Shown: positions 108 through 10,683 of the stretch, in pieces
Position numbering within the stretch: the stretch's first letter is position 1
Layout: every line of letters begins with the position of its first letter
From: Streptomyces sp. NRRL S-118
GTDB lineage: Bacteria > Actinomycetota > Actinomycetes > Streptomycetales > Streptomycetaceae
Direction of reading: 5' to 3'
NCBI RefSeq assembly: GCF_000716335.1
Contig: NZ_JOBL01000267.1
Coordinates: forward strand, 1-11,453
Length of the DNA stretch: 11,453 bases
Notes under the pieces: generated by a model
The model's database searches: none
What the model was told of the DNA's origin: nothing
The model's input: the letters and a program-made list of their open reading frames with translations, nothing else
Made by a program: the position numbers and the translations under genes

Positions 108-1085
108 TCATGACGACTCGAGACCGGCAGCCGGGTCCGACGCTCCGGAGCGCCGTCTCCTCCAGAACGGTGTGTCCCACCGCCGCTCCCTCCCGTAACA
201 GATGAGGCGGCCCCTCAAGAACTCGCTGTGGCTCGCCCCGACCAGTCCGGCATAAGCACTCAGAGCGGCGGAGTCGCCTGCCGCGTCGGCGTGAAGGGCG
301 TCGGCCGCCGCGATGCCTGTGGCGAGTGCGGTGATGATGCCCCTCGCGGCGATCGGGTCGGACGTGGTGGCAGCGTCACCCACCGCGGCCCATCCCGGAG
401 CTGCCGCGGGGCTGGTGCACGACGTCGCCGTCCGTACGATGCGCAGCCCGGAAGGCGGGGCTGCCCTTGCGCGCCACACGCGTTGGCGAAGAAGGGTGGT
501 CTCCTGCAGCGCCCCCCACCAGTGGTCTGGCCTGTGGAGCGCCTGCCCGGCGACGAGGTCGGCGTCCGTCATCGCCATGACGAAGCAAGTTCCGGCGGGC
601 AGCGGCGCGCTGTACCACCAGCCGAAGGGCGCCGACTCGATCAGCGAACTCCGGGGCACACCGCGACCCGGCGCGCCGAACGGCAGGCAGGCCGCGAGAG
701 CGACCATACGGTCAGCCCTCACGAGGGTGGCTCCTGCCTGACGCGCCAAGAGACAGGAATGAGTGCGATCGAGGTGCCACCCCGTTCCATAGGGGCTGAA
801 GAGGAAGTCCACCTCATCGAGCGTGTCACCACCCCAGAGCGACTGATTGCCGAAGCACGGGGTGTGGGGCCCGGTGGCCACCGCGTCCAGCACGCCGAGG
901 CGCTCCAGGAGAGGTCTCGCCCGGGACGCCAGGCTTTCACCGGGCTTCCACGGATGTCTGCTGCCCGGGTCGATGATGACGACGGAGGCACCGTGGTGTG
1001 CAAGGGTGATCGCGGCCGCGGCCCCCGCAGGCCCCGCCCCGGCAACGGCCACGTCACTGCACGCACCGGCCCAAGGTTCACTCAT
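108..1085 (-). CDS. LodB-like FAD-dependent oxidoreductase, internally shortened
   Basis: A 325-residue flavoprotein of the FAD monooxygenase/tryptophan-halogenase-like superfamily. Visible features are an N-terminal Rossmann motif GAGPAG (residues 16-21) ending in VVIID, a GWWYSAPL segment (155-162), and the C-terminal FAD motif VGDAATTSDPIAARGI (235-250). In known LodA/LodB pairs the flavoprotein is needed to form the CTQ cofactor of the oxidase, and its position directly after the LodA-type gene supports that role here. The ATG start at 1085 overlaps the upstream stop by one base (TGATG), so translation is probably coupled; the longer reading frame upstream is antisense-quality sequence inside the neighbour. 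Oddity: HLDRT (104-108) runs straight into a segment resembling the later LARQ-GA/RADRMVALAA region. About 75-80 residues usually present between them, including the DATG motif, appear absent. It could therefore be a degenerate copy. Confidence 0.85.
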   Translation of the reverse strand: MSEPWAGACSDVAVAGAGPAGAAAAITLAHHGASVVIIDPGSRHPWKPGESLASRARPLLERLGVLDAVATGPHTPCFGNQSLWGGDTLDEVDFLFSPYGTGWHLDRTHSCLLARQAGATLVRADRMVALAACLPFGAPGRGVPRSSLIESAPFGWWYSAPLPAGTCFVMAMTDADLVAGQALHRPDHWWGALQETTLLRQRVWRARAAPPSGLRIVRTATSCTSPAAAPGWAAVGDAATTSDPIAARGIITALATGIAAADALHADAAGDSAALSAYAGLVGASHSEFLRGRLICYGRERRWDTPFWRRRRSGASDPAAGLESS

Positions 1086-4000
1086 CAGTGCACGGCCCCC
1101 ATGCCGTACACGTGCATCGGCGGTTTCTCCGCGGCGCCGGCGCCGGCGCCGGGGGCCTTGGCCGGCAACGGTGCCGAGAGAAGAGGCCGGTTGGCCGGAG
1201 GCGTCAGGTCCGGCAGCGGACAACCCGCAGCGATCCAGTTGATGGTGATCTCGCGGCCGGTCATCCCCGTCCCGGGCACCACGCCGGCGTAGGCCCTGCC
1301 CATGCTGGTCGACGGTGCGAGAAGGCCGAGGAAGGCGCTCTCCTCCGGGCGGCCGGGTGAGACGAGCTCGTTGCCCAGGTGGGCGACGGCGCTCAGGAGG
1401 AACACCGTGGGCTGGGTGAACCACCAGGCGACCGACTCGTGCCTGGTGCGGGTCGGGTCGCCGGGGTCGGGGCCGGTGATGCGGATGCCGGTGTGGGCGA
1501 CCGAACCCGTCTGCCGCGGGCGCAGCGTGTCGACCAACCGGATCATTGCCTGCAGCGGTGAGAGGTGAGGGTGACCGTCGGGGGGAAGGGCGAGTGAACG
1601 AGTCCACTCGCGCCACAGCTCGAGCTCGCTCTCCTCGAAGACTTTGTACATGGGCCCGGAGAACGTGGTCAGTTCGAAGAAGGGGCTCTTCTCCGGTTCC
1701 CCCGGCACGATCAGTCCCGACTCCTGGAGCTCCAGCAGAAGACCGAGAGGGTCGAGGAACCAGTCGTTGATCGTGTTGCCTCCGAGCCGCTTGTCGTGGT
1801 GGTTCATGCGGGCGAAGGGAGCCTTGCGCTCGATCAGGCCGATCAGCCGCTCCTGCGGTGTCGGCCGGTCGGCCACCAGAGCTCTGAGGTCATCGGACAG
1901 GGTGCCGACGATGAGGAAGGCCACATAGCCGTCCCAGATGCGTCGCCAGTGCTCCTGTACGGCTTCATCTCCGCCGCTCTCGTGCACCTTGTCCAGGTAG
2001 AGCATGACCGCATCGCGGGCCTTGGCACCGTGACCCGCCGCCGCATTGTCGATGCCGATGTGCATCCTGTAGAACTGCGAATTGATGCCGTGATAGTCCA
2101 GCAGCCGCACGACCGGCACGATCTCCAGAACGTTCCACTCCAGTTGCAGTGTCATTCCGAGCAGTTCCGGAAAGAAGCGCTGGGAATGCTGGGAGATGGC
2201 CAATTGGAACACGCTGGCCGTGTACGCCGAATCAAGCATCTCCGGGAGCATGGCGAACTGGTAGGAGTCGACCGGTGGAAGGTACAGGCCCACACTGTGC
2301 AACAGATCGGCATAGAGGTTGGAATGGTTCAGGGCGGGATCACCGCCGCCGATCTCGTCGATCCAGATGGAGAACAGCAGTGAATGGACCTCGTCGATCG
2401 GCCCCAGGGGAGTGATGTTGCGCAACCAGGCGCCGTCCAGAAGGTTGAACGGCGCGAATTGACGGATCCGCTCGATGACGTCGCTACGGGTACGGAGCGG
2501 GTCGAGTGCGGGGTCTGCGTTCTCCACCCGTTCCACGATGTTCGTGTAGATGAGCTGCAGCCGTGCTTCGAATGCGTCACGGGTGTAGCGGAACGGACGC
2601 AGCATCAGCGGGAACAAGGGGTCGGTGGTCTGTGCTGCCCGGGCCTGGGCCAGCACCGCCTCCGCGTAGCGCTGGGCAGCATCCGCCTGCTCGGGGTACC
2701 GGTCGGGGTGTTGGAGCATGTGGAACCAGTCACGGTCGCCGAGTCCGACGTGCTCCGCGCGTTCGGTTTCGACCAGCATGGTTTCGCCCGACGTACCGGT
2801 ACGGGACACGACGAAGCCGAGGCTGCTCCATTTCTCGACCATCTCGTTGTCTCCGGCGTGCGCGCGCAGCAGGGTCCAGCGCTCGGCGACCCTGTCGAGG
2901 TACTGTTGCTCGTTCTCGCCCGGCAGCGGATCGAGTTGCGGAGGGTAGACCGGCTGGACGCCGACGCCACGCGCCCATGGCCTGCGGTACACACTGAGCT
3001 CGGTGGGCTCCCAATGGGCCTCCGCCGTGCTGATGAGCCGCCGGTACTGCTCCTCGGGCAGGACGTCGTCCGGGCGTTGAGCCGGCCACCAGTGCGTATG
3101 GCACTCGTAGAAGTCGGCGTGCCACGGCACGGCCATATGCTTGGTGACATCTCCGGCCCGAAGGTCCTCACGCAGGCGGAACGGTTCCGACCAGGTCGAC
3201 GGCTCAGCGGCGATGTACGTCATCTCGATGCCTGGGAAGAACGACGCCCCGACACATGCCTCGAGGGAAGCCCGGACCAGCGCGTGCGGTTGCTCGGCAA
3301 GAGGGAGGTCGCTGAGCGGAACCGCTTCGACCGGGCCCGTGCCGTCGGCGATGAATTCGCCTGCGGCCCATCGGCGCATTTGTTCGTACTGTCCCGGCAG
3401 GAGTGACGTCCAGGTGCGGGGCTTGCCGTCGGTCGGAGCTCCGTCGTCCCCCGCGAGCTGTGGCATGAAGGCGTAGTTGGCCTGGGTCACGTCCTCCGCG
3501 CCGGGCGTGCGCAGCCGGTCGAAGACCGCCTTCCTGACGCCCGAGTCCTCCGGGGCGTTCGATGCCAGGCGGGAAAGGAGGCCGGGGTTCAGGAAATCGC
3601 CCTGCGTGCCCCGGCCGTGCCCTCGCAGAGCGTTCCTGTTCACCCATGAGTAGCCATGGATGCGTTCCAGCAGTGGGCGGATGTCACGGGTGAACGACAC
3701 CTCGCCGGCCTGCGGCAGCCGGCCGGTGCGCTCGGCGACATCGCGGGCGACGTCGTACAGGGTCACGAGATTCGACGTGTCGGGTGAGAAGTCGGGTGGA
3801 GCGACGATCACCCAGGCGGGCCTCACGGGAACCGTGCGGTGCTCGCCGACACGCACGGTAGCCGTGACCGGTCCGTCGGAGGTGTCGTCGTACCAGTGGT
3901 CGTTGTTCGCGTAGTGGGTCAGAGGGTTGTCCGGTTTCACGGAGGCCGCCTGCCCGAAGCCGCCCAGGACGAGGAGCCGCCCCGCCTCGTCGGTCCGCAG

Positions 4001-4480
4001 CTCCCCGAGGGGGACCGGCTTCCCGAGAAAGGTCCCGGTGTCGAACTGGGCGTCCGTGCCATCCGCGTCCGGGCCCTTGACCCGTCGCGGCCCCGGCGTG
4101 ATCATCAGCGTCGCACGCGCCTGCGGATCCGCCGGATCGACGTGCTGATTACGCCGGTTCTCCAGGGATACCGACTGATAGAATCGCCCGCGGAACTGGA
4201 ACCACGCCGCTTTGGTATTGGACAGCTCGACCGACCATTCCACGTCTGCATCGGCAGCCGACACCTCGCCGAGGACATTGCCGTCCTTGTCGAACGCATA
4301 GACACGAAAGCGTGCGGCCTGGCGCTTGATCCGTCCTTCGGGATCTTTGAAACCACCCTCCGGACGGACCGGGATGCCCGGTGACTCCGGCCCGACGAAG
4401 TACGCGTCCGGGCTGTTGCCGACTCGTGCGACGCCGACCGTCGGATGGATTTCGCAATAGGCGATCTCGTCAGGATTCAA
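1085..4480 (-). CDS. LodA/GoxA-type CTQ oxidase fused to a heme-oxygenase-like diiron (HDO) domain
   Basis: A 1131-residue protein; LodA/GoxA enzymes are usually about 650-750 residues. Residues 1-580 are the quinoprotein oxidase domain. It opens with the family signature EIHPTVGVARVGNS (10-23). It carries the candidate CTQ Cys409 in ACVGASFFPGIE, with partner Trp candidates W453 (PWHADF) or W464/W465 (HWWPAQRPDD). Family members oxidatively deaminate amines or amino acids (lysine, glycine), releasing H2O2 and ammonia. Residues about 660-960 look like an iron-containing redox enzyme (HDO fold): E709 (WIDE), H719 (LNH), E781, then H807-x3-D811-x5-H817 (HIGIDN...GH). A segment with GPMYKVF (942-948) follows, then a poorly recognised region and an Ala/Gly/Pro-rich tail. 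No signal peptide or heme-binding CxxCH was seen. The start chosen is TTG at 4480, which has a good RBS; the ATG at 4588 would add 36 residues and has none. Confidence 0.88.
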   Translation of the reverse strand: MNPDEIAYCEIHPTVGVARVGNSPDAYFVGPESPGIPVRPEGGFKDPEGRIKRQAARFRVYAFDKDGNVLGEVSAADADVEWSVELSNTKAAWFQFRGRFYQSVSLENRRNQHVDPADPQARATLMITPGPRRVKGPDADGTDAQFDTGTFLGKPVPLGELRTDEAGRLLVLGGFGQAASVKPDNPLTHYANNDHWYDDTSDGPVTATVRVGEHRTVPVRPAWVIVAPPDFSPDTSNLVTLYDVARDVAERTGRLPQAGEVSFTRDIRPLLERIHGYSWVNRNALRGHGRGTQGDFLNPGLLSRLASNAPEDSGVRKAVFDRLRTPGAEDVTQANYAFMPQLAGDDGAPTDGKPRTWTSLLPGQYEQMRRWAAGEFIADGTGPVEAVPLSDLPLAEQPHALVRASLEACVGASFFPGIEMTYIAAEPSTWSEPFRLREDLRAGDVTKHMAVPWHADFYECHTHWWPAQRPDDVLPEEQYRRLISTAEAHWEPTELSVYRRPWARGVGVQPVYPPQLDPLPGENEQQYLDRVAERWTLLRAHAGDNEMVEKWSSLGFVVSRTGTSGETMLVETERAEHVGLGDRDWFHMLQHPDRYPEQADAAQRYAEAVLAQARAAQTTDPLFPLMLRPFRYTRDAFEARLQLIYTNIVERVENADPALDPLRTRSDVIERIRQFAPFNLLDGAWLRNITPLGPIDEVHSLLFSIWIDEIGGGDPALNHSNLYADLLHSVGLYLPPVDSYQFAMLPEMLDSAYTASVFQLAISQHSQRFFPELLGMTLQLEWNVLEIVPVVRLLDYHGINSQFYRMHIGIDNAAAGHGAKARDAVMLYLDKVHESGGDEAVQEHWRRIWDGYVAFLIVGTLSDDLRALVADRPTPQERLIGLIERKAPFARMNHHDKRLGGNTINDWFLDPLGLLLELQESGLIVPGEPEKSPFFELTTFSGPMYKVFEESELELWREWTRSLALPPDGHPHLSPLQAMIRLVDTLRPRQTGSVAHTGIRITGPDPGDPTRTRHESVAWWFTQPTVFLLSAVAHLGNELVSPGRPEESAFLGLLAPSTSMGRAYAGVVPGTGMTGREITINWIAAGCPLPDLTPPANRPLLSAPLPAKAPGAGAGAAEKPPMHVYGMGAVH

Positions 4481-4485
4481 CCAGG

Positions 4486-4490
4486 CCTCC
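4486..4490 (-). promoter_or_regulatory. Ribosome binding site deciding a TTG start
   Basis: On the minus strand GGAGG lies five bases before the TTG codon at 4480. The first in-frame ATG, at 4588, is preceded by a C-rich stretch with no purine-rich site. The TTG start also places the family signature at residue 10, about where LodA-type proteins normally begin it. Confidence 0.6.
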
Positions 4491-4628
4491 GTCAGGAACT
4501 GCGACGGCCGATTGACGCGCAGGCATTCCCCCAGATGCTGCCCAGGGGGTCGTCGCAGAGTGGGCTGGAAACGTCCGCATGGTCGCATATGCGGGCGTCG
4601 GGGGGTTTGTGCCGCGCCGGGCAGGCCA

Positions 4629-4656
4629 ACAGTAGAGATCAGGAGCTACGCTGCAA
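4629..4656 (-). promoter_or_regulatory. Candidate promoter for the CTQ oxidase operon
   Basis: On the minus strand TTGCAG (-35-like, 4656-4651) and TACTGT (-10-like, 4634-4629) are separated by 16 bases. This would give a leader of roughly 140 bases before the TTG start. It lies in the 280-bp divergent intergenic region between the oxidase gene and the methyltransferase gene. That region must also hold the rightward promoter, which I could not assign convincingly. The call rests on hexamer resemblance only. Confidence 0.3.
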
Positions 4657-4760
4657 CGAGGAGGGGAACCTTGCCGGTGTTCACGTCCTGGGAGAAGCCC
4701 TCTCCGGGAAACGGGTACCGGCTGATTCTGTGATGACGGAACCCGATTGGACATGCACAG

Positions 4761-5681
4761 GTGACCTCCTTGTCCGCCGAGCTCCCCCGGGCCGCGGAAT
4801 TGACGATGCAACAGGCGATCCCTCCCTGGCACTTCGCCATGATGAACGACCAGGAGCGAAATCACGCCTATCGGCAAGCGATCGAGACGGCCGTTCGCCC
4901 CGGTGACCTCGTCCTGGACATCGGTACCGGCGCCGGTGTCACGGCGCTGCTCGCCGCTCGCGCCGGTGGTCAGGTCTTCACCTGCGAAAGCAACCTTCAC
5001 ACGGCGTTCCTCGCAGACCGGGTGATCAGCGCCAACGGCTACGGCGACCGGATCACACTGATTCCGCGCTCGTCCACCGAGCTCGTTGTCGGCCGCGACC
5101 TCCCCGGAAAACCGGACGTCGTCACCGCTGAGATCTTCGACTGCGGGCTGATCGGTGAGTCGGCCCTGCATGCCCTCGAGCACGCCCACCGCGAGCTCAT
5201 CTCCTCCACCACGCGCCTCGTTCCCTCCGGCGGCCGCCTCTGGGCGCAGCTGGTGGAGAGCGAGAGCCTCCACGGGCTCAACCACGTCGATGTCGTGGAG
5301 GGCTTCGACCTGCGCCCGTTCAACGTTGCGAGCACGCGCGGTTACTTCCCGCGCCGGATCGACTGTCACCCCCATACCGTTCTGGCTCCCGCGTTCAGGC
5401 TTTTCGACTTCACCTTCGGTGAACCACCCGTTCCCCGCACCCGGCAGCTCACGGTCCCCGTCACCAGGGACGGCATCGCACACGCCGCCGTCATGTGGTT
5501 CGAACTCGACCTCGGCAACGGCATCACCGTGAGCAACCACGGCGCGGGTTCGTGCCACTGGGAGCAGGCAGTGCAAACCTTCCCCGCGCCGGTCACGACG
5601 AAGGCGGGTGCGGCCGTTCGCATCACGGCACGGCACGACCTGTGTGCACTGACCCTCGACGTCGAACGGACACGACTCTGA
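4761..5681 (+). CDS. PRMT7-like protein arginine methyltransferase
   Basis: A 306-residue class I SAM-dependent methyltransferase with PRMT hallmarks. WHFAMMND followed by RN..Y..AI (23-41) matches the N-terminal PRMT5/7-type signature. Motif I is VLDIGTGAG (51-59) and the acidic SAM-ribose residue is probably E76. A double-E loop is present as AEIFDCGLIGE, with E124 and E133 nine apart. A THW-loop equivalent CHWEQAV occurs at 265-271. PRMTs methylate arginine guanidino nitrogens in proteins. They are common in eukaryotes and unusual in bacteria, so a dedicated local substrate is plausible. The gene is divergent from the CTQ oxidase and its stop overlaps the glycosyltransferase start. GTG at 4761 is used; its RBS is weak, and the ATG at 4806 (M16) is an alternative that keeps all motifs. 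An automatic pipeline might call it a generic class I methyltransferase. Confidence 0.85.
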   Translation: MTSLSAELPRAAELTMQQAIPPWHFAMMNDQERNHAYRQAIETAVRPGDLVLDIGTGAGVTALLAARAGGQVFTCESNLHTAFLADRVISANGYGDRITLIPRSSTELVVGRDLPGKPDVVTAEIFDCGLIGESALHALEHAHRELISSTTRLVPSGGRLWAQLVESESLHGLNHVDVVEGFDLRPFNVASTRGYFPRRIDCHPHTVLAPAFRLFDFTFGEPPVPRTRQLTVPVTRDGIAHAAVMWFELDLGNGITVSNHGAGSCHWEQAVQTFPAPVTTKAGAAVRITARHDLCALTLDVERTRL

Positions 5682-6664
5682 TGGACCGGCGCACCGGGCA
5701 AGGGGTGACGGCAGACCCGCGGGTGACGGTGATCGGAGCGACGAGGAACGCACGTCCGGTGACCCGCCTGACGTACGCGTCGTTCCGTCGCCACACTCCC
5801 GAACCCGTTCGCGTGCTGGTGGCGGACAACGGATCCACTGACGGCACGCTCGACGATCTACGGCGGCTCGACTGGGTGACCGTCTTCTCACTGGACGAGA
5901 GGAAGCGCCGTGCCCGGGAGGAGGCGCTGGAAGCGCGCAGGACGCTGCGGAAGCTGAAGAAGAAGATGGATGCGCTGGTCGCCGAGTGCCCAGCGGGGCA
6001 GCGCTTCTTGCTCGAGAAGCTCAGGACCGGAGTGGAGATCGTGCTCCCGACCGACAGCGAGCTCTGCCAGCATTCCACAGCTCTCGACTGGCTCGCGCCC
6101 CAGGTGGACACGCCGTACTTTCTGCTGCTCGACTCCGATGTCGAGTTTCTGGCCCCGGGGTGGCTCAGCGATCTCGTCGACCTTGCGGAAGCCGAGGGGC
6201 TGGCAGCCGTCGGCGAATTCGAACCCGGCCGGTTTCCTTGCCAGGATCGCCTCGCGACCTACCTGCTCCTGCTGCGCACCGACGCATTCCGCGGGCTCGG
6301 CGTCCCCTTCCGCCAGGTTCTGCGGTTCGGCGACCCACGTGAGGAGGAGCGGTGGTACGCGCGTGCACGCCACCATGTTCTTGATCCGTCGGCTTTCGAC
6401 GGCTTCCCGTCAGCGGCCTTCTACGACACGGCAGCCGCTCTCTTCGAGGAGATGCAACGGCAAGAAGTGCCGTGGAAGCCCTTCCCGCCCGGTGTCGCAG
6501 CCAAGTTCCGCCACCTCGGACAGATGTCGTGGTCGGCCGATGCGCACGACGACTACGTCGGCGTCGAACTCCTGCGTGCACACGTGCGGGTGGCCGGCGA
6601 GTATGCCCGTACCCGTCTCAGGGATCAGTACGACGGTGGACTGCCGGGCTGGCAACCCTGCTGA
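5681..6664 (+). CDS. Family-2-type (GT-A) glycosyltransferase
   Basis: A 327-residue protein. RVTVIGATRN (14-23) and VLVADNGSTDGT (45-56) form the nucleotide-sugar-binding first half typical of GT2 enzymes. LLLDSDVEF (148-156) supplies the metal-binding DxD motif D151-S-D153. FRHLG (276-280) may give the C-terminal His seen in many GT-A enzymes. Between these halves, residues 72-115 form a highly charged, basic helical stretch rich in Arg, Lys and Glu, which I do not recognise from ordinary GT2 enzymes. No membrane segment was seen, so it is probably cytosolic. The ATG overlaps the methyltransferase stop by one base (TGATG), so the two are probably made together. The acceptor is unknown; a peptide or protein from this locus is an inference from context. 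Confidence 0.82.
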   Translation: MDRRTGQGVTADPRVTVIGATRNARPVTRLTYASFRRHTPEPVRVLVADNGSTDGTLDDLRRLDWVTVFSLDERKRRAREEALEARRTLRKLKKKMDALVAECPAGQRFLLEKLRTGVEIVLPTDSELCQHSTALDWLAPQVDTPYFLLLDSDVEFLAPGWLSDLVDLAEAEGLAAVGEFEPGRFPCQDRLATYLLLLRTDAFRGLGVPFRQVLRFGDPREEERWYARARHHVLDPSAFDGFPSAAFYDTAAALFEEMQRQEVPWKPFPPGVAAKFRHLGQMSWSADAHDDYVGVELLRAHVRVAGEYARTRLRDQYDGGLPGWQPC

Positions 6665-6668
6665 CACT

Positions 6669-6683
6669 CCGGCCGCCGGCCGG
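6669..6683. terminator. Possible bidirectional terminator hairpin
   Basis: A perfect inverted repeat, CCGGCC-GCC-GGCCGG (six-base arms, three-base loop), lies in the 47-bp gap between the convergent stops at 6664 and 6712. There is no T-tract, as is common in high-GC actinomycetes. Placement is the main support. Confidence 0.4.
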
Positions 6684-6711
6684 GGCGCTGGTGGTGGGTC
6701 CTGCGATGTCA

Positions 6712-7885
6712 TCAGGGGCAGAACGTCGCCCTCAGATCAGCGGCCGCGTGGGAAGGAACTAGAGGCCCGAACAGCTCGAGCCGGCCCAGGATTTCATCCA
6801 CCTCGGCTCCGGACACTTCGACGTCGGGAACCTGCTCGCGCAGGCTGGCCCAGGAGATGAGGAAGACACCTGCCGCTGTGCTGCCGTCCAGATGGGCAGC
6901 CGCGGGCTCCCCGAGGATGCGAGCAGTGAAACGACCGCCGGAAGTGGGCCGGTCGGTACGGCGGTCGAGGGTCGTGTAGAGGTGAACGAGTTGTTCGGCC
7001 TTCGCGCCGATGACCTCCCGCAGTGTGGCCCGGGCGTCCGGGGGCAGGAGGGCGGTGCCGAGGCCCAGCGGTCCGTAGATCCCGTGGAAGAGCCCGATCG
7101 GATAGTGGTCGCGTTCTCGCCCGGGGTCCGGAGGCGGCAGCCCGCCGACCGGCATGCGGAACCTCATGGGCCCCGATCCGCTCCATGAACTGCCGTAGGT
7201 GACCGGGGAGAGCCCCCGCGTCCCGACCGCGGCGCAGTCCTTCGCGCGCATCCGCGGCCCAGTACGACAGCACCAGGCTGTATCTGATGCCGCTCCGTAC
7301 CGGGAGGACGGAATGGAAGGAGCGGTCGGACAATTCCATGAGCGCCGCACGGTTGTGCACCGGCCGCACGCGCACGGCGTCGTCCGAGGAGAACTGCGAG
7401 CGCTGGAGCATCAGCTCTCCCCCTGTGACGGGGGGAGTGGGGGACGCGAACGAGATCACCGCTCGATGGGTCTCGGTGAGGCCGTGCGGTACATCGGTGT
7501 GCGTCCGGATGTACTGCCCCTCCACCAGCTTGTGCGCACTGACCTCGATACGCCGCCGCTCCATCGGACGGCGGAAGACCTCCTCCAGCCGGTCGGCTGC
7601 GCCCAGCAGCATCGCGCTGGTGCAGGTCGAGTCGGCGAAGAGAAGATCCAGGAGGTTCACGCAGCGGTGCTGCTCGTAAAGACCGGTGCGCTCGACGGCC
7701 CAGGAGCCCTGCTTCTCGAGCCAGTCGAGGATGCGGGCGGCGATGTCCTCGTCGAGGAATCCGTCGATGAGAGCGTGCCGATACGGCTCCCGTGCGAGTG
7801 CGGCGGAGCCGGCGCACCGTTCGGGGCTGGTGGGGGCGGAGCCGGATCGGGATGTGGCTCTCGTATCACTCGTCCGGCCGGTCAT
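6712..7885 (-). pseudogene. 2-oxoglutarate/Fe(II) hydroxylase with a frameshifted C-terminal domain
   Basis: The gene starts at ATG 7885, overlapping the upstream radical SAM stop by four bases (ATGA). Residues 1-246 read as a 2OG/Fe(II) dioxygenase of the prolyl-4-hydroxylase-like type. H129-T-D131 is the HxD iron motif, H191 (SFHSVLPV) the distal iron ligand, R201 (GIRYSL) the likely 2OG-binding Arg, and GGELML (155-160) a typical core strand. After about 7165 this frame loses coding character and runs open to 6794. The next frame shows strong G/C third positions, continues as GLFHGIYGPLG and VIGAKAEQLVHLYTTLDRR, and ends with TGA at 6712. That second part resembles the DUF6817-type domain (recalled, not searched). 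The shift lies around 7110-7165. Alternatives are two overlapping genes, with the second starting at an ATG near 7175, or a sequencing error. Confidence 0.6.
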
Positions 7886-8988
7886 CCGTGCTCGTCCGCC
7901 ACGGGATGTGCTCGGACGTGGCGGATGAAGTCGGCCTGCCCGCAGCACCCGCCGACGGGTTCCGGATCATGACGCGCGGCCATGTACGTCTCCATGGGGC
8001 ATCCGCCCCGGCACACCTCGACCTCGGGGCACTGCTGCAGCGACGCCTCTTCCTCCGCTCGCTCGGCAACGACCACCTTCATGTTCGGGCTTCGCCGGAT
8101 GGCCGCGAAGTCCTGGTGCATGATGTCGCCCCACTGGTAGCTCGGGTCGCCCAGCAGGTAGCAGCAATGGTTGACATCACCGTTGGCTTCGACCGTGTAG
8201 AGGTTTCCGAAGCAGTCGCCCGCGAACGTGCACGGCAACGAGCCGCCGCGGATCTTCGCCAGCCGGTGCCGCACCGTGGAGATCTCCCGGATCTCGATGC
8301 CCCGGTCGCCGTGAGCCCGCCACCGGTCGTACAGGCCGATCAGGAACTCCGTCCGTTCCTTGGTCGTGATGTAGTGATCAACCCTGGTGCCGGGCGGGGC
8401 ATGGGGCTGCGGCTCGGGCATGGCGAAGTTGATGCCGTAGTCACGGATACCGACCTCTGCCATGAAGTCGAAGAGCGCGTCAGGGCCGAGGGCAAGTGCC
8501 TGCCGGTCCACCACCGAGATGACTCCCACACCGAGCCCCTCCGCGCGGAGCTTCGCGTAGCCGCGCAGCGCGCGGTCCAGGGTGGGACGGCCGGCCGCGT
8601 CCACACGGTGGCGGTCATGGACCTCGCGCGGGCCGTCCACGCTGATGCCGACCTGCCATTCGTACCGGCGGAAGAAGTCGATCCACCTATCGCTGATGTG
8701 GAGGGCATTCGTGTGGATCGAGTTGACGATGGGCTGTCCCGGGCGCCTGAAACGCCCCTGTACCGCCATCACCTTCTCGAAATAGTCGATCGGAACCAGC
8801 GTGGGCTCTCCGCCGTGCCAGAGGAACTCGACCGCCCGGTGCTCGGGGTCCCGGAGCGCCGCGGCCGTCATGCGGGCGGCCACTCGGAACGGCATCCTCT
8901 GATCCGGTCCTGACCGCCAGTCGTAACAGTACGAGCACCGCAGGTTGCACAAGCGGGTTACCTTGACAATGAGCCCGACGTCGCGCAT
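7882..8988 (-). CDS. Radical SAM/SPASM peptide-modifying-type enzyme (second copy)
   Basis: A 368-residue radical SAM protein. C14-x3-C18-x2-C21 (LCNLRCSYCYDW) binds the catalytic [4Fe-4S] cluster, and WHGGEPT (57-63) is the SAM-binding GGE motif. The C-terminal SPASM region has Cys253, 259, 275/276, 320, 326, 330 and 348/349, suited to auxiliary clusters. The arrangement resembles anaerobic sulfatase maturases and FxsB-like RiPP enzymes, so the substrate is probably a peptide or protein. No N-terminal RRE-type recognition domain is present. It aligns almost without gaps over its first half to the adjacent radical SAM protein, so the pair arose by duplication. The ATG at 8988 has RBS AGGGAGA at 8997-9003; the much longer open frame upstream is a shadow of the neighbour. 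Its stop overlaps the hydroxylase start. Confidence 0.88.
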   Translation of the reverse strand: MRDVGLIVKVTRLCNLRCSYCYDWRSGPDQRMPFRVAARMTAAALRDPEHRAVEFLWHGGEPTLVPIDYFEKVMAVQGRFRRPGQPIVNSIHTNALHISDRWIDFFRRYEWQVGISVDGPREVHDRHRVDAAGRPTLDRALRGYAKLRAEGLGVGVISVVDRQALALGPDALFDFMAEVGIRDYGINFAMPEPQPHAPPGTRVDHYITTKERTEFLIGLYDRWRAHGDRGIEIREISTVRHRLAKIRGGSLPCTFAGDCFGNLYTVEANGDVNHCCYLLGDPSYQWGDIMHQDFAAIRRSPNMKVVVAERAEEEASLQQCPEVEVCRGGCPMETYMAARHDPEPVGGCCGQADFIRHVRAHPVADEHG

Positions 8989-9011
8989 CGCGCTGTTCTC
9001 CCTGAAGTCGG

Positions 9012-10130
9012 TCAACCTGATACGGCCGGAGCCGGTTCGGCGTTCTGCGGCGGGTTCGCACGGATGTGCGTGATGAGCGGCCGCAGGCCACAGCAGTCCT
9101 CGCGATGCCCCGCGTAGTGCTGACGTGATGTGTGCCGTACATGGGGGCACCAGCCGTTGCACACACTGAATTCGTCGCAGGAGCGCATCCGCTCGCGGTC
9201 CTGCGCATGGGCCTTGGACCGCTCGTGAAGGCCGGCATTCCGCCGGATGGCGGAGAAGTCGTCGGTGTTGATGTTCCCCCAGCGATAGCGGGGGTCTTCT
9301 CCGAAATAGTCGCAGTGGCGGACGTCGCCGTTCGGCTCGATGCGATAGACGATGCCGAAACAGCGACCCGCCAGGGTGCACGGCGAGGGCTTCCTGCCGT
9401 GCAGCGACTCCACGAGCGCGGCCAGTTCCCGGATGTGGATGTCCGGGCCTGTGTGCCGGCGCCAGCGGTCGTACAGGCCGATGAGGAACCGGGCGGACTG
9501 CCCGGGATCGACGTAGTGCCGCCCGTCGCCGTGCCCGATCGCATCGGCGAGGGCGTCCGGCATCACGAAATTGAGACCGGCGACGCTGATGTCATGCTCG
9601 ATGAGGAAGTCGAACAGGGCTGCGGGGCCCACGTCCAGGGCCGCCTGGTCCACGACGACTCCGACGCCCGGTTCGATCCCGTGGTCCCGCAGCCGCCGGA
9701 GCCCCTCCAGCGTCCGGGCCAATGTGGGGCGACCTGCTCTGTCGACACGGTAGCGGTCGTGAACGGCAGCCGGCCCGTCGATGCTGATGCCCACGTCGAT
9801 GTGGTTGTCCGCGAAGAACCGCGCCCACTCCGACGTGATCCGCGTGGCGTTGGTCTGGATGGCGTTCCGGACCAGCTGGCCCGGCTGCCGGAAGCGCTCC
9901 TGCAGATGAAGTGCCTTCTTGAAGAAGGCGAGGGGAAGGACCGTGGGCTCACCGCCGTGCCAGTCGAACCCGGCCGAACGATGGTCGGGGTGGCCGAGCG
10001 TCCTGGCGACGAGCCGTGCAAGAGTGCTGAAGGACATGGTGTTGCCCTCGCCCGCGCGCCAGTCGTAGCAGTAGGTGCAGCGCAGGTTGCACAGTCGGGT
10101 CGCTTTGACGATGAGTTCCACACTGGTCAT
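9012..10130 (-). CDS. Radical SAM/SPASM peptide-modifying-type enzyme (first copy)
   Basis: A 372-residue paralogue of the next gene downstream. The radical SAM motif is C14-x3-C18-x2-C21 (LCNLRCTYCYDW), and WHGGEPT is at 57-63. SPASM cysteines are C251, C257, C273, C318, C324, C328 and C346/C347. Compared with the common C-x2-C-x5-C-x3-C block, the first Cys is missing (M315 in its place), as in the paralogue. The ATG overlaps the stop of the 78-residue gene by four bases (ATGA), a strong sign that enzyme and small protein work together. The expected reaction is 5'-deoxyadenosyl-radical H-atom abstraction from a peptide. Which bond is formed cannot be read from the sequence; the lack of Cys in the candidate substrates argues against thioether formation. 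Confidence 0.9.
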   Translation of the reverse strand: MTSVELIVKATRLCNLRCTYCYDWRAGEGNTMSFSTLARLVARTLGHPDHRSAGFDWHGGEPTVLPLAFFKKALHLQERFRQPGQLVRNAIQTNATRITSEWARFFADNHIDVGISIDGPAAVHDRYRVDRAGRPTLARTLEGLRRLRDHGIEPGVGVVVDQAALDVGPAALFDFLIEHDISVAGLNFVMPDALADAIGHGDGRHYVDPGQSARFLIGLYDRWRRHTGPDIHIRELAALVESLHGRKPSPCTLAGRCFGIVYRIEPNGDVRHCDYFGEDPRYRWGNINTDDFSAIRRNAGLHERSKAHAQDRERMRSCDEFSVCNGWCPHVRHTSRQHYAGHREDCCGLRPLITHIRANPPQNAEPAPAVSG

Positions 10131-10363
10131 TCCGGCCGCCGAAACTCCGATTCGAGCTCACGGACGAGAGCTTCCTCCGAAGGGTCGAGCACGTCCACCT
10201 GTTCCACGCGCATGCGGTCGTGAGGACCGGCGTGACGCCAGGCGAGGTCGATGAGGATCGCGCGCTCCCTCTCGGAGAGTTCCGCATTGCCCCAGTCGAA
10301 GAGCTTGGCCGCGAGACCGGCCGCCGTCTGCTTGTCCGGCTGCACTGCCGAGGTCGATTCCAT
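10127..10363 (-). CDS. Small Cys-free acidic protein, candidate modification substrate or carrier
   Basis: A 78-residue protein not assignable to a known family. Residues 20-37 contain KLFDW...ELSERERAIL, a predicted amphipathic helix matching one in the upstream small protein. The remainder, including VEQVDVLDPSEE and a C-terminal FRRPE, is charged and probably helical. It has no Cys, signal peptide or membrane segment. The ATG at 10363 has AGGAA four bases upstream (10368-10372), overlapping the previous stop. The first in-frame ATG (10402) would overlap the preceding gene and lacks support. The downstream radical SAM start overlaps its stop. It could be a precursor peptide, a leader or partner protein, or an enzyme-bound adaptor. 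The sequence alone does not decide. Confidence 0.75.
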   Translation of the reverse strand: MESTSAVQPDKQTAAGLAAKLFDWGNAELSERERAILIDLAWRHAGPHDRMRVEQVDVLDPSEEALVRELESEFRRPE

Positions 10364-10371
10364 GCCGTTCC

Positions 10372-10683
10372 TCACCTCTGCCGCTGAATGAATCTCACCC
10401 ACGACGGGCCTGCCTCCTTGATGTACACGCGCTTCCCGGGACCCTCCTGCTCGTACCGGAAGCGGTACAGGAGGCTCTCCAGAGGAACCTCGATGCTGAA
10501 CTTGTTGAACTTGAAGCCGCGCTCCTCAAGACTTGTCGTGCCGTGCTGCACGTCCTCAGGAGGAGTCATCATGGCCTGCAGCAGGGCCTTTTCCTTGTCG
10601 TCGAGGCCCTCGCTCCATTGCTCGAGCTTCCGGACGAATGCCGCGACCTCGTCTTCCGAAATGCGTTCGTGTTCCTCAGCCAT
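10372..10683 (-). CDS. Small Cys-free protein, candidate precursor of the radical SAM pair
   Basis: A 103-residue protein of unrecognised family, first in the leftward operon. Residues 19-35 carry KLEQWSEGLDDKEKALL, the same helix motif as the next small protein; it may act as a leader or recognition element. The C-terminal half alternates aromatic and basic residues: FKFNKF (57-62), YRFRY (73-77), VYIK (86-89), WVRF (95-98), then FIQRQR at the end. That pattern fits either a small beta-sheet or aromatic-x-x crosslink sites. There is no Cys. The ATG at 10683 has the best RBS of the window, GAGGGAGG at 10689-10696, five bases upstream. Its arginine-rich end makes it a conceivable target for the arginine methyltransferase, which is inference only. 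Confidence 0.8.
   Translation of the reverse strand: MAEEHERISEDEVAAFVRKLEQWSEGLDDKEKALLQAMMTPPEDVQHGTTSLEERGFKFNKFSIEVPLESLLYRFRYEQEGPGKRVYIKEAGPSWVRFIQRQR

What the first reader, a model, noticed from the sequence alone, without database searches (positions are those of the whole stretch)
108..10683. Candidate undescribed peptide/protein-modification system combining radical SAM pair, PRMT, hydroxylase, glycosyltransferase and CTQ oxidase
Three tightly packed operons encode two small Cys-free proteins plus seven enzymes of types that act on peptides or amino acids. I recall no characterised RiPP class with this set. The likely order is radical SAM modification of a small protein, then hydroxylation, methylation and glycosylation, with the CTQ oxidase/HDO acting on a Lys/Gly amine or on a released product. 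The order and the shared substrate are inference.
Basis: inference. Interest (0 to 1): 0.85.

Follow-up and report, generated by a model that had tools for sequence, protein, structure and literature searches.

The report
Heavily tailored radical-SAM peptide gene cluster
A Streptomyces gene cluster appears to make a small ring-bridged peptide and to decorate it with an unusual set of enzymes, including a relative of protein arginine methyltransferases; two of its genes look damaged in this strain.

Summary
In detail: two Cys-free small proteins (sp1, sp2) and seven enzymes in three gene groups, sp2-sp1-rSAM2-rSAM1-2OG, PRMT-GT2 and LodA-LodB. Best reading: a RiPP cluster. sp2 has a leader-like helix shared with other radical-SAM-linked peptides and an invariant C-terminus GPSWVRFIQR (6 of 6 sequences). 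W-x-R is a known target of DarE/triceptide-type radical SAM enzymes, the nearest curated families here, though below cut-off. sp1 and its relatives have [W/H]-x-R at one aligned place (4 of 4), so sp1 may be partner or second substrate. The hydroxylase is YhhC-like, the methyltransferase PRMT7-like. The gene order recurs in Streptomyces sp. 378, with dN/dS 0.11-0.32. But LodA-LodB occurs without the rest in G129 and G058, and the small-protein/radical-SAM core without LodA in G173, so oxidation of the same peptide is unproven. Relative to sp. 378, a frameshift cuts DUF6817 from the hydroxylase and LodB lacks 51 codons. New variant of a known kind; its tailoring set was not found in the library searched. 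Crosslink site, order and oxidase role are inferred.

The parts
10372..10683 (-). sp2, 103 aa, proposed precursor peptide
   Evidence: 5 database homologues; 55 of 103 columns invariant in 6 sequences; dN/dS 0.108
10549..10656 (-). sp2 leader-like helices (about residues 10-45)
   Evidence: sp2 HMM finds the same leader beside the G173 radical SAM gene and in G727; 0 of 400 shuffles as high for each
10381..10410 (-). sp2 proposed core GPSWVRFIQR (residues 92-101); WVR at 10393-10401, FIQ at 10384-10392
   Evidence: invariant in 6 of 6; positions; low AF2 confidence over 78-103
10127..10363 (-). sp1, 78 aa helical small protein, partner or second substrate
   Evidence: AF2 mean pLDDT 73.8 from 3 rows; same place and size in G173 and Cupriavidus
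10214..10222 (-). sp1 H48-D49-R50, aligned with H-E-R (sp. 378), W-K-R (G173) and W-S-R (Cupriavidus)
   Evidence: alignment A3, R50 invariant in 4 of 4
9012..10130 (-). rSAM2, radical SAM/SPASM, CxxxCxxC at 10068-10091
7882..8988 (-). rSAM1, radical SAM/SPASM, CxxxCxxC at 8926-8949
   Evidence: 47% identical to rSAM2
6794..7885 (-). 2OG-Fe(II) oxygenase, YhhC-like, reading frame up to and past the break at about 7097
   Evidence: PF13640; NF041706 114 bits, cut-off 150; HTD 7484-7501, H 7307-7321, R 7277-7291
6712..7096 (-). DUF6817 (HD-like) domain, out of frame with the oxygenase here, fused to it in sp. 378
5681..6664 (+). family 2 glycosyltransferase
   Evidence: PF00535 43.6 bits, cut-off 23.3; no solved relative by sequence
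4761..5681 (+). PRMT7-like methyltransferase; double-E loop EIFDCGLIGE at 5130-5159
   Evidence: best solved relative PRMT7, E 1e-41; position
4481..4760 (.). divergent intergenic region between PRMT and LodA
   Evidence: divergent layout also in sp. 378
1085..4480 (-). LodA/GoxA-like CTQ oxidase fused to a haem-oxygenase-like domain
   Evidence: TTG start as in relatives
3083..3115 (-). CTQ residues: Cys496 in DFYEC and the Trp in HWW
   Evidence: Cys aligned by HMMER with LodA C516 (C516 and W581 named in PMC4417212); the Trp partner was assigned by eye, not by the aligner
1937..2464 (-). Haem_oxygenas_2 domain of the LodA fusion
   Evidence: PF14518 79 bits, cut-off 28.9
108..1085 (-). LodB/GoxB-like flavoprotein, with a 51-codon gap at about 749-759 relative to sp. 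378

Best explanation
It is a RiPP biosynthetic gene cluster of the darobactin/triceptide radical-SAM kind. sp2 is the precursor: its N-terminal helices are the leader and its C-terminal GPSWVRFIQR is the core. rSAM2 and rSAM1 install side-chain crosslinks; the most likely site is Trp95-x-Arg97 of sp2. The second radical SAM enzyme may act on Phe98-x-Gln100 of sp2 or on His48-x-Arg50 of sp1; sp1 is otherwise a recognition partner. The YhhC-like 2OG enzyme then hydroxylates the core, the PRMT7-like enzyme methylates a core Arg, and GT2 adds a sugar, perhaps at the new hydroxyl. LodB matures the CTQ cofactor of the LodA/haem-oxygenase-like fusion, which may oxidatively deaminate a free amine of the released product; this is the weakest step. 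Shown by sequence: gene content, motifs, conserved order, purifying selection. Inferred: crosslink sites, order of steps, sites of methyl, hydroxyl and sugar, role of the oxidase. In this strain the hydroxylase C-terminal domain and LodB look damaged.
For: sp2 C-terminal ten residues invariant in 6 of 6 sequences down to 64% identity. Leader shared with peptides beside other radical SAM genes. G173 and a Cupriavidus plasmid repeat the layout WVR-bearing small protein, sp1-sized protein, radical SAM gene, glycosyltransferase. Nearest NCBIfam models of both rSAMs are DarW and DarE. Trp-Arg crosslinks have precedent in DarE on WNWSRSF (PMC9055067, passages) and XncB (PMC11002830, passages); YhhB links His to Arg. 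Hydroxylase closest to YhhC. PRMT7-like methyltransferase beside an Arg-rich core. Same order in sp. 378 and dN/dS 0.11-0.32.
Against: Curated cut-offs of DarE, DarW, YhhC, GoxA, LodA and GoxB are not reached, and the anaerobic sulfatase maturase model ranks third for both rSAMs and is the best solved relative of rSAM2. WVR is absent from the leader-sharing G727 and G751 peptides. None of the ten window translations scanned hit a protease or transporter family. The LodA module is separable. sp1 relatedness across loci is weak by sequence: 2 and 25 of 1000 shuffles as high. Only six sp2 sequences exist to judge conservation.
Confidence: 0.55

Rival explanations
1. Two functional units lie side by side: a radical-SAM RiPP cluster (sp2 to GT2) and an independent LodA-LodB amino acid oxidase that makes hydrogen peroxide or uses free amino acids. 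They are neighbours and are inherited together in close relatives, but do not share a substrate.
For: LodA-LodB without the other window genes in the 20-kb regions of G129, G058 and G159; LodA fusion relatives in many organisms (730 at E <= 1e-100, best 120 seen); radical-SAM core without a LodA-like gene in G173, and the Cupriavidus plasmid is not among the 23 plasmids with a LodA match. rSAM2 relatives at 76-83% (S. sp. CJ_13, S. albogriseolus, S. nigrescens and one unnamed) have no counterpart between 71 and 86% in the LodA list.
Against: The divergent PRMT/LodA layout is kept in sp. 378 with LodA at 89%; S. yangpuensis also has sp2, rSAM2 and LodA at 92, 90 and 86%.
Confidence: 0.35
2. The small proteins are not precursors. 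The radical SAM proteins mature another enzyme, such as a sulfatase or the LodA protein, and sp1 and sp2 are accessory or regulatory proteins.
For: Sulfatase maturase is the third-best family and the closest solved relative; most of sp2, not only its C-terminus, is conserved.
Against: LodA-LodB occurs without radical SAM genes in G129 and G058; sp2 model is of low confidence and its last 26 residues score under 50; the leader is shared with peptides of different C-termini. No sulfatase was seen in the window.
Confidence: 0.07
3. In this strain the cluster is decaying and makes no full product. This does not exclude the readings above.
For: Frameshifting loss in the 2OG/DUF6817 gene and a 51-codon gap in LodB relative to sp. 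378; in sp. 378 the PRMT is itself split between contig ends.
Against: The 2OG catalytic residues precede the break; the 8 genes or parts tested have dN/dS 0.11-0.32, which does not exclude a recent loss; draft-assembly error is possible.
Confidence: 0.3

Closest known systems
Daropeptides (darobactin, DarA/DarE)
   Same: Nearest curated radical SAM families are DarW and DarE; a Trp-x-Arg unit at the precursor C-terminus, as in the Arg-containing daropeptide WNWSRSF (PMC9055067).
   Different: Two diverged radical SAM genes, no W-x-W ether motif, a second small protein, and hydroxylase, PRMT, GT and CTQ oxidase genes; the paper's minimal cluster is darA and darE.
Triceptides (XncB, YhhB and related enzymes)
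   Same: Aromatic-x-Arg three-residue motif is a described target (PMC11002830); YhhC-like 2OG oxygenase.
   Different: Radical SAM proteins score far below the cyclophane-maturase cut-offs; leader unlike any NCBIfam model.
LodA/LodB and GoxA/GoxB quinoprotein oxidases
   Same: LodA_N and LodA_C domains, conserved CTQ Cys, adjacent LodB-like gene. Fusion with PF14518 listed in 2015 (PMC4417212).
   Different: Located beside a peptide cluster; below the LodA and GoxA cut-offs; the PF14518 domain is C-terminal here, while the paper speaks of N-terminal regions.
PRMT7
   Same: Best solved relative by sequence, with the double-E loop aligned.
   Different: A single 306-aa unit; matches both halves of the 692-residue PRMT7 chain; Pfam PRMT_C is just under cut-off (26.9 against 27).

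Membership tests
RiPP (radical SAM class) | small gene with conserved leader and a C-terminal core next to a modifying enzyme | tested here: met
RiPP (radical SAM class) | enzymatic modification of the small protein | not testable with these tools
   needs co-expression and mass spectrometry
Radical SAM/SPASM peptide maturase | CxxxCxxC and SPASM domain | tested here: met
   PF04055 and PF13186 above cut-off in both; motifs
Daropeptide | DarE-type synthase at the NCBIfam cut-off | tested here: not met
   DarE 248 and 274 bits, DarW 303 and 314, cut-off 650
Daropeptide | W-x-W or W-x-F/Y ether motif in the core | tested here: not met
   core is GPSWVRFIQR
Triceptide | aromatic-x-x motif with crosslink between residues i and i+2 | tested here: inconclusive
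   motif W-V-R present and invariant in 6 of 6; crosslink untested
Triceptide | cyclophane-forming rSAM at a curated cut-off | tested here: not met
   AmcB, GrrM, FxsB, YhhB and XncB models all below cut-off
YhhC 2OG oxygenase | NF041706 score at cut-off | tested here: not met
   114 bits here, 105 in sp. 378, cut-off 150
YhhC 2OG oxygenase | H-x-D...H...R residues of 2OG enzymes | tested here: met
   role of the residues recalled
LodA/GoxA family | LodA_N and LodA_C domains | tested here: met
   248 and 105 bits, cut-offs 26.3 and 25
LodA/GoxA family | CTQ Cys and Trp | tested here: inconclusive
   Cys aligned with C516; Trp assigned by eye
LodA or GoxA proper | curated NCBIfam cut-off | tested here: not met
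   GoxA 378 of 750, LodA 211 of 600
PRMT | sequence relation to PRMT7 with the double-E loop | tested here: met
   E 1e-41, loop aligned
PRMT | arginine as methyl acceptor | not testable with these tools
   needs an enzyme assay

The most novel reading that the evidence does not exclude
A new RiPP class with two small substrates: sp2 with a Trp-Arg bridge and sp1 with a His-Arg (elsewhere Trp-Arg) bridge, each made by its own radical SAM enzyme; a core Arg is methylated by a PRMT7-type enzyme, the product is hydroxylated and glycosylated, and finally oxidised at an amine by a CTQ quinoprotein fused to a haem-oxygenase-like oxidase, giving an aldehyde-bearing or shortened peptide antibiotic or cofactor.
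Probability: 0.2. Interest if true: 0.85.

Novelty: new variant of a known kind. Interest (0 to 1): 0.6.

Why it matters
It would bring a PRMT7-type arginine methyltransferase and a CTQ amine oxidase into peptide natural-product biosynthesis; the open library searched held no paper with radical SAM, RiPP and LodA or with arginine methyltransferase, RiPP, precursor peptide and radical SAM. It also offers a defined case of two diverged DarE-like enzymes beside one short core, so their division of labour can be tested, and a conserved second small protein that may be a new recognition subunit or second substrate.

Tried and rejected
A genome-contig scan with sp2 gave one locus, sp. 378; a viral scan with rSAM2 gave no relative. 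Among the 20 of 41 plasmid records shown for rSAM2 most were annotated as sulfatase maturases, with Cupriavidus (no annotation) the best; its precursor found only itself among plasmids. G785 has a more distant radical SAM gene (36%) with a different small ORF and was set aside. The G727 and G751 peptides share the leader but not WVR, and I saw no radical SAM gene among the ORFs of the short contigs held; G727 was in the query alignment, so its match there is by construction. A QhpC-like role for the small proteins (thioether target of the radical SAM QhpD, recalled) was rejected because they lack Cys. Maturation of LodA by the radical SAM proteins was rejected because LodA-LodB occurs without them. 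sp1 as a mere recognition protein is not established: the aligned [W/H]-x-R keeps it open as a second substrate; those four sequences are only two independent groups. No fold search was run: the sp2 model is too poor, and matches of a small helical model would say little. S. yangpuensis, S. nigrescens, S. albogriseolus, S. sp. CJ_13 and Plantactinospora could not be reached by name, so their neighbourhoods were not read. G281 is taken as Streptomyces sp. 378 because contig length and sp2 position agree with L036.
Full report
Gene content. The window is a whole 11,453-bp contig of a 7.9-Mb genome, of the same genus as G281, which matches Streptomyces sp. 378. ORFs, base composition by frame and family scans give three gene groups: minus strand sp2, sp1, rSAM2, rSAM1, 2OG oxygenase (10683 down to about 6712); plus strand PRMT and GT2 (4761-6664); minus strand LodA fusion and LodB (4480 down to 108). 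Neighbours within groups overlap or lie within about 25 bases.

Corrections. Against sp. 378 the window lacks a net 62 bp at about 7097 in the oxygenase gene, which puts the C-terminal DUF6817 domain out of frame; the 2OG residues lie before the break. LodB lacks a net 153 bp, in frame. In sp. 378 the oxygenase/DUF6817 ORF (up to 421 aa) and a 401-aa LodB ORF are open, but its PRMT is split: residues 1-100 match the end of contig C66 and 97-306 the end of contig C59. The outer 67 and 52 bases of these ends do not match PRMT and carry a similar CCAAATGAGA stretch, which suggests an inserted element; not proven.

One locus in close relatives. In sp. 378 the order sp2, sp1, rSAM2, rSAM1, 2OG/DUF6817, GT, PRMT goes on, on the second contig, with PRMT, LodA (89%) and LodB. 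dN/dS is 0.108 (sp2), 0.319 (sp1), 0.162 (rSAM2), 0.153 (rSAM1), 0.291 (GT), 0.161 (LodA), 0.293 (LodB), 0.281 (PRMT residues 97-306). S. yangpuensis has sp2, rSAM2 and LodA relatives at 92, 90 and 86%; their arrangement could not be read. A Streptomyces sp. NPDC051310 protein is 99% identical to the LodA fusion.

Rarity and independence. sp2: 5 homologues in the protein database; 2 of 392 Streptomyces (own, G281); 2 of 396 genomes of the phylum (own; G727 at E 4.7e-4). rSAM2: 3 of 392 Streptomyces at E <= 1e-70 (own, G281, G173); 2 of 394 of the class at 1e-85 (own, G173); 2 of 100 relatives at 1e-40 (own, G785); 2 of 81 relatives of G281 at 1e-60 (G281, G785). The draws overlap. LodA-like matches at E <= 1e-30: 26 of 199 Streptomyces, namely own, G129 and G058 over the whole fusion, G159 over the first half with one stop inside, 14 with a match to the LodA part and 8 to the haem-oxygenase-like part only. 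The 20-kb regions of G129, G058 and G159 show LodA and LodB and no match to the other window proteins at E <= 1e-3. Only 120 of 730 LodA relatives and 120 of 457 rSAM2 relatives were listed.

Precursor and partner. Six sp2 sequences, the window included, share 55 of 103 positions, among them all ten of GPSWVRFIQR. An sp2 HMM scores the small protein beside the G173 radical SAM gene (16.0 bits) and two G727 peptides (20.8, 23.3) above all 400 shuffles of each; sp1 is borderline (window 2, sp. 378 1 of 400 shuffles as high). G173 and a Cupriavidus plasmid share a layout: WVR-bearing precursor, sp1-sized protein, one radical SAM gene, a GT4-type glycosyltransferase. Their precursors match at E 3e-18 and their sp1-like proteins at E 3e-14 (small two-sequence BLAST without composition correction). 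Window/sp. 378 sp1 matches these two weakly (2 and 25 of 1000 shuffles as high). In the alignment of the four sp1-like proteins an invariant Arg is preceded two places earlier by His, His, Trp, Trp. AF2: sp2 mean pLDDT 44.5 from 6 rows, helices 10-24 and 29-39, residues 78-103 under 50; sp1 73.8 from 3 rows, all helical.

Enzymes. Best NCBIfam models are DarW and DarE, below cut-off, with sulfatase maturase third. The methyltransferase matches PRMT7 best. The LodA fusion matches LodA and GoxA structures; PF14518 fusions of LodA-like proteins were listed in 2015 (PMC4417212, passages and section 7 read).

Mechanism. DarE crosslinks Trp to Arg in WNWSRSF (PMC9055067, passages); XncB links Trp to Arg and YhhB His to Arg at i+2 (PMC11002830, passages). 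A W95-R97 bridge in sp2, and an H48-R50 bridge in sp1, thus have chemical precedent. F98-x-Q100 is offered only because the residues are invariant and there are two enzymes. Hydroxylation, Arg methylation and glycosylation follow from the families; sites are unknown. The CTQ oxidase step rests on conserved position in close relatives alone.

Literature. No paper in the open-licence PMC library held radical SAM + RiPP + LodA or arginine methyltransferase + RiPP + precursor peptide + radical SAM. Two held radical SAM, RiPP, heme oxygenase-like and Streptomyces, by title on thioamidated RiPPs (listing only). Other searches: (listings, apart from the three papers above). Absence in print is claimed no further than this.

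Odds. On re-checking, the [W/H]-x-R in sp1 was added and the novel case was widened to two substrates; its probability was set at 0.2, lower than in the returned draft (0.25), because it now needs more to be true.

Noticed in passing
L036 8239-8807 and L052 5321-6333 (Streptomyces sp. 378): Transposase-like ORFs lie on both sides of the cluster in sp. 378 (rve/HTH_21 hits beside sp2; ORFs of similar look beyond LodB), which suggests a mobile or recently inserted island.
   Followed up: partly
L041 1-60 and L052 1-75: The two sp. 378 contig ends that meet inside the PRMT gene carry a similar CCAAATGAGA stretch, as expected of the ends of an inserted element.
   Followed up: partly
   Followed up: partly
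L053 7257-10385 (Cupriavidus sp. KK10 plasmid, unannotated): A WVR-bearing small protein, an sp1-like protein, a DarW-like radical SAM gene and a GT4-type glycosyltransferase in a row in a betaproteobacterium.
   Followed up: yes
   Followed up: no
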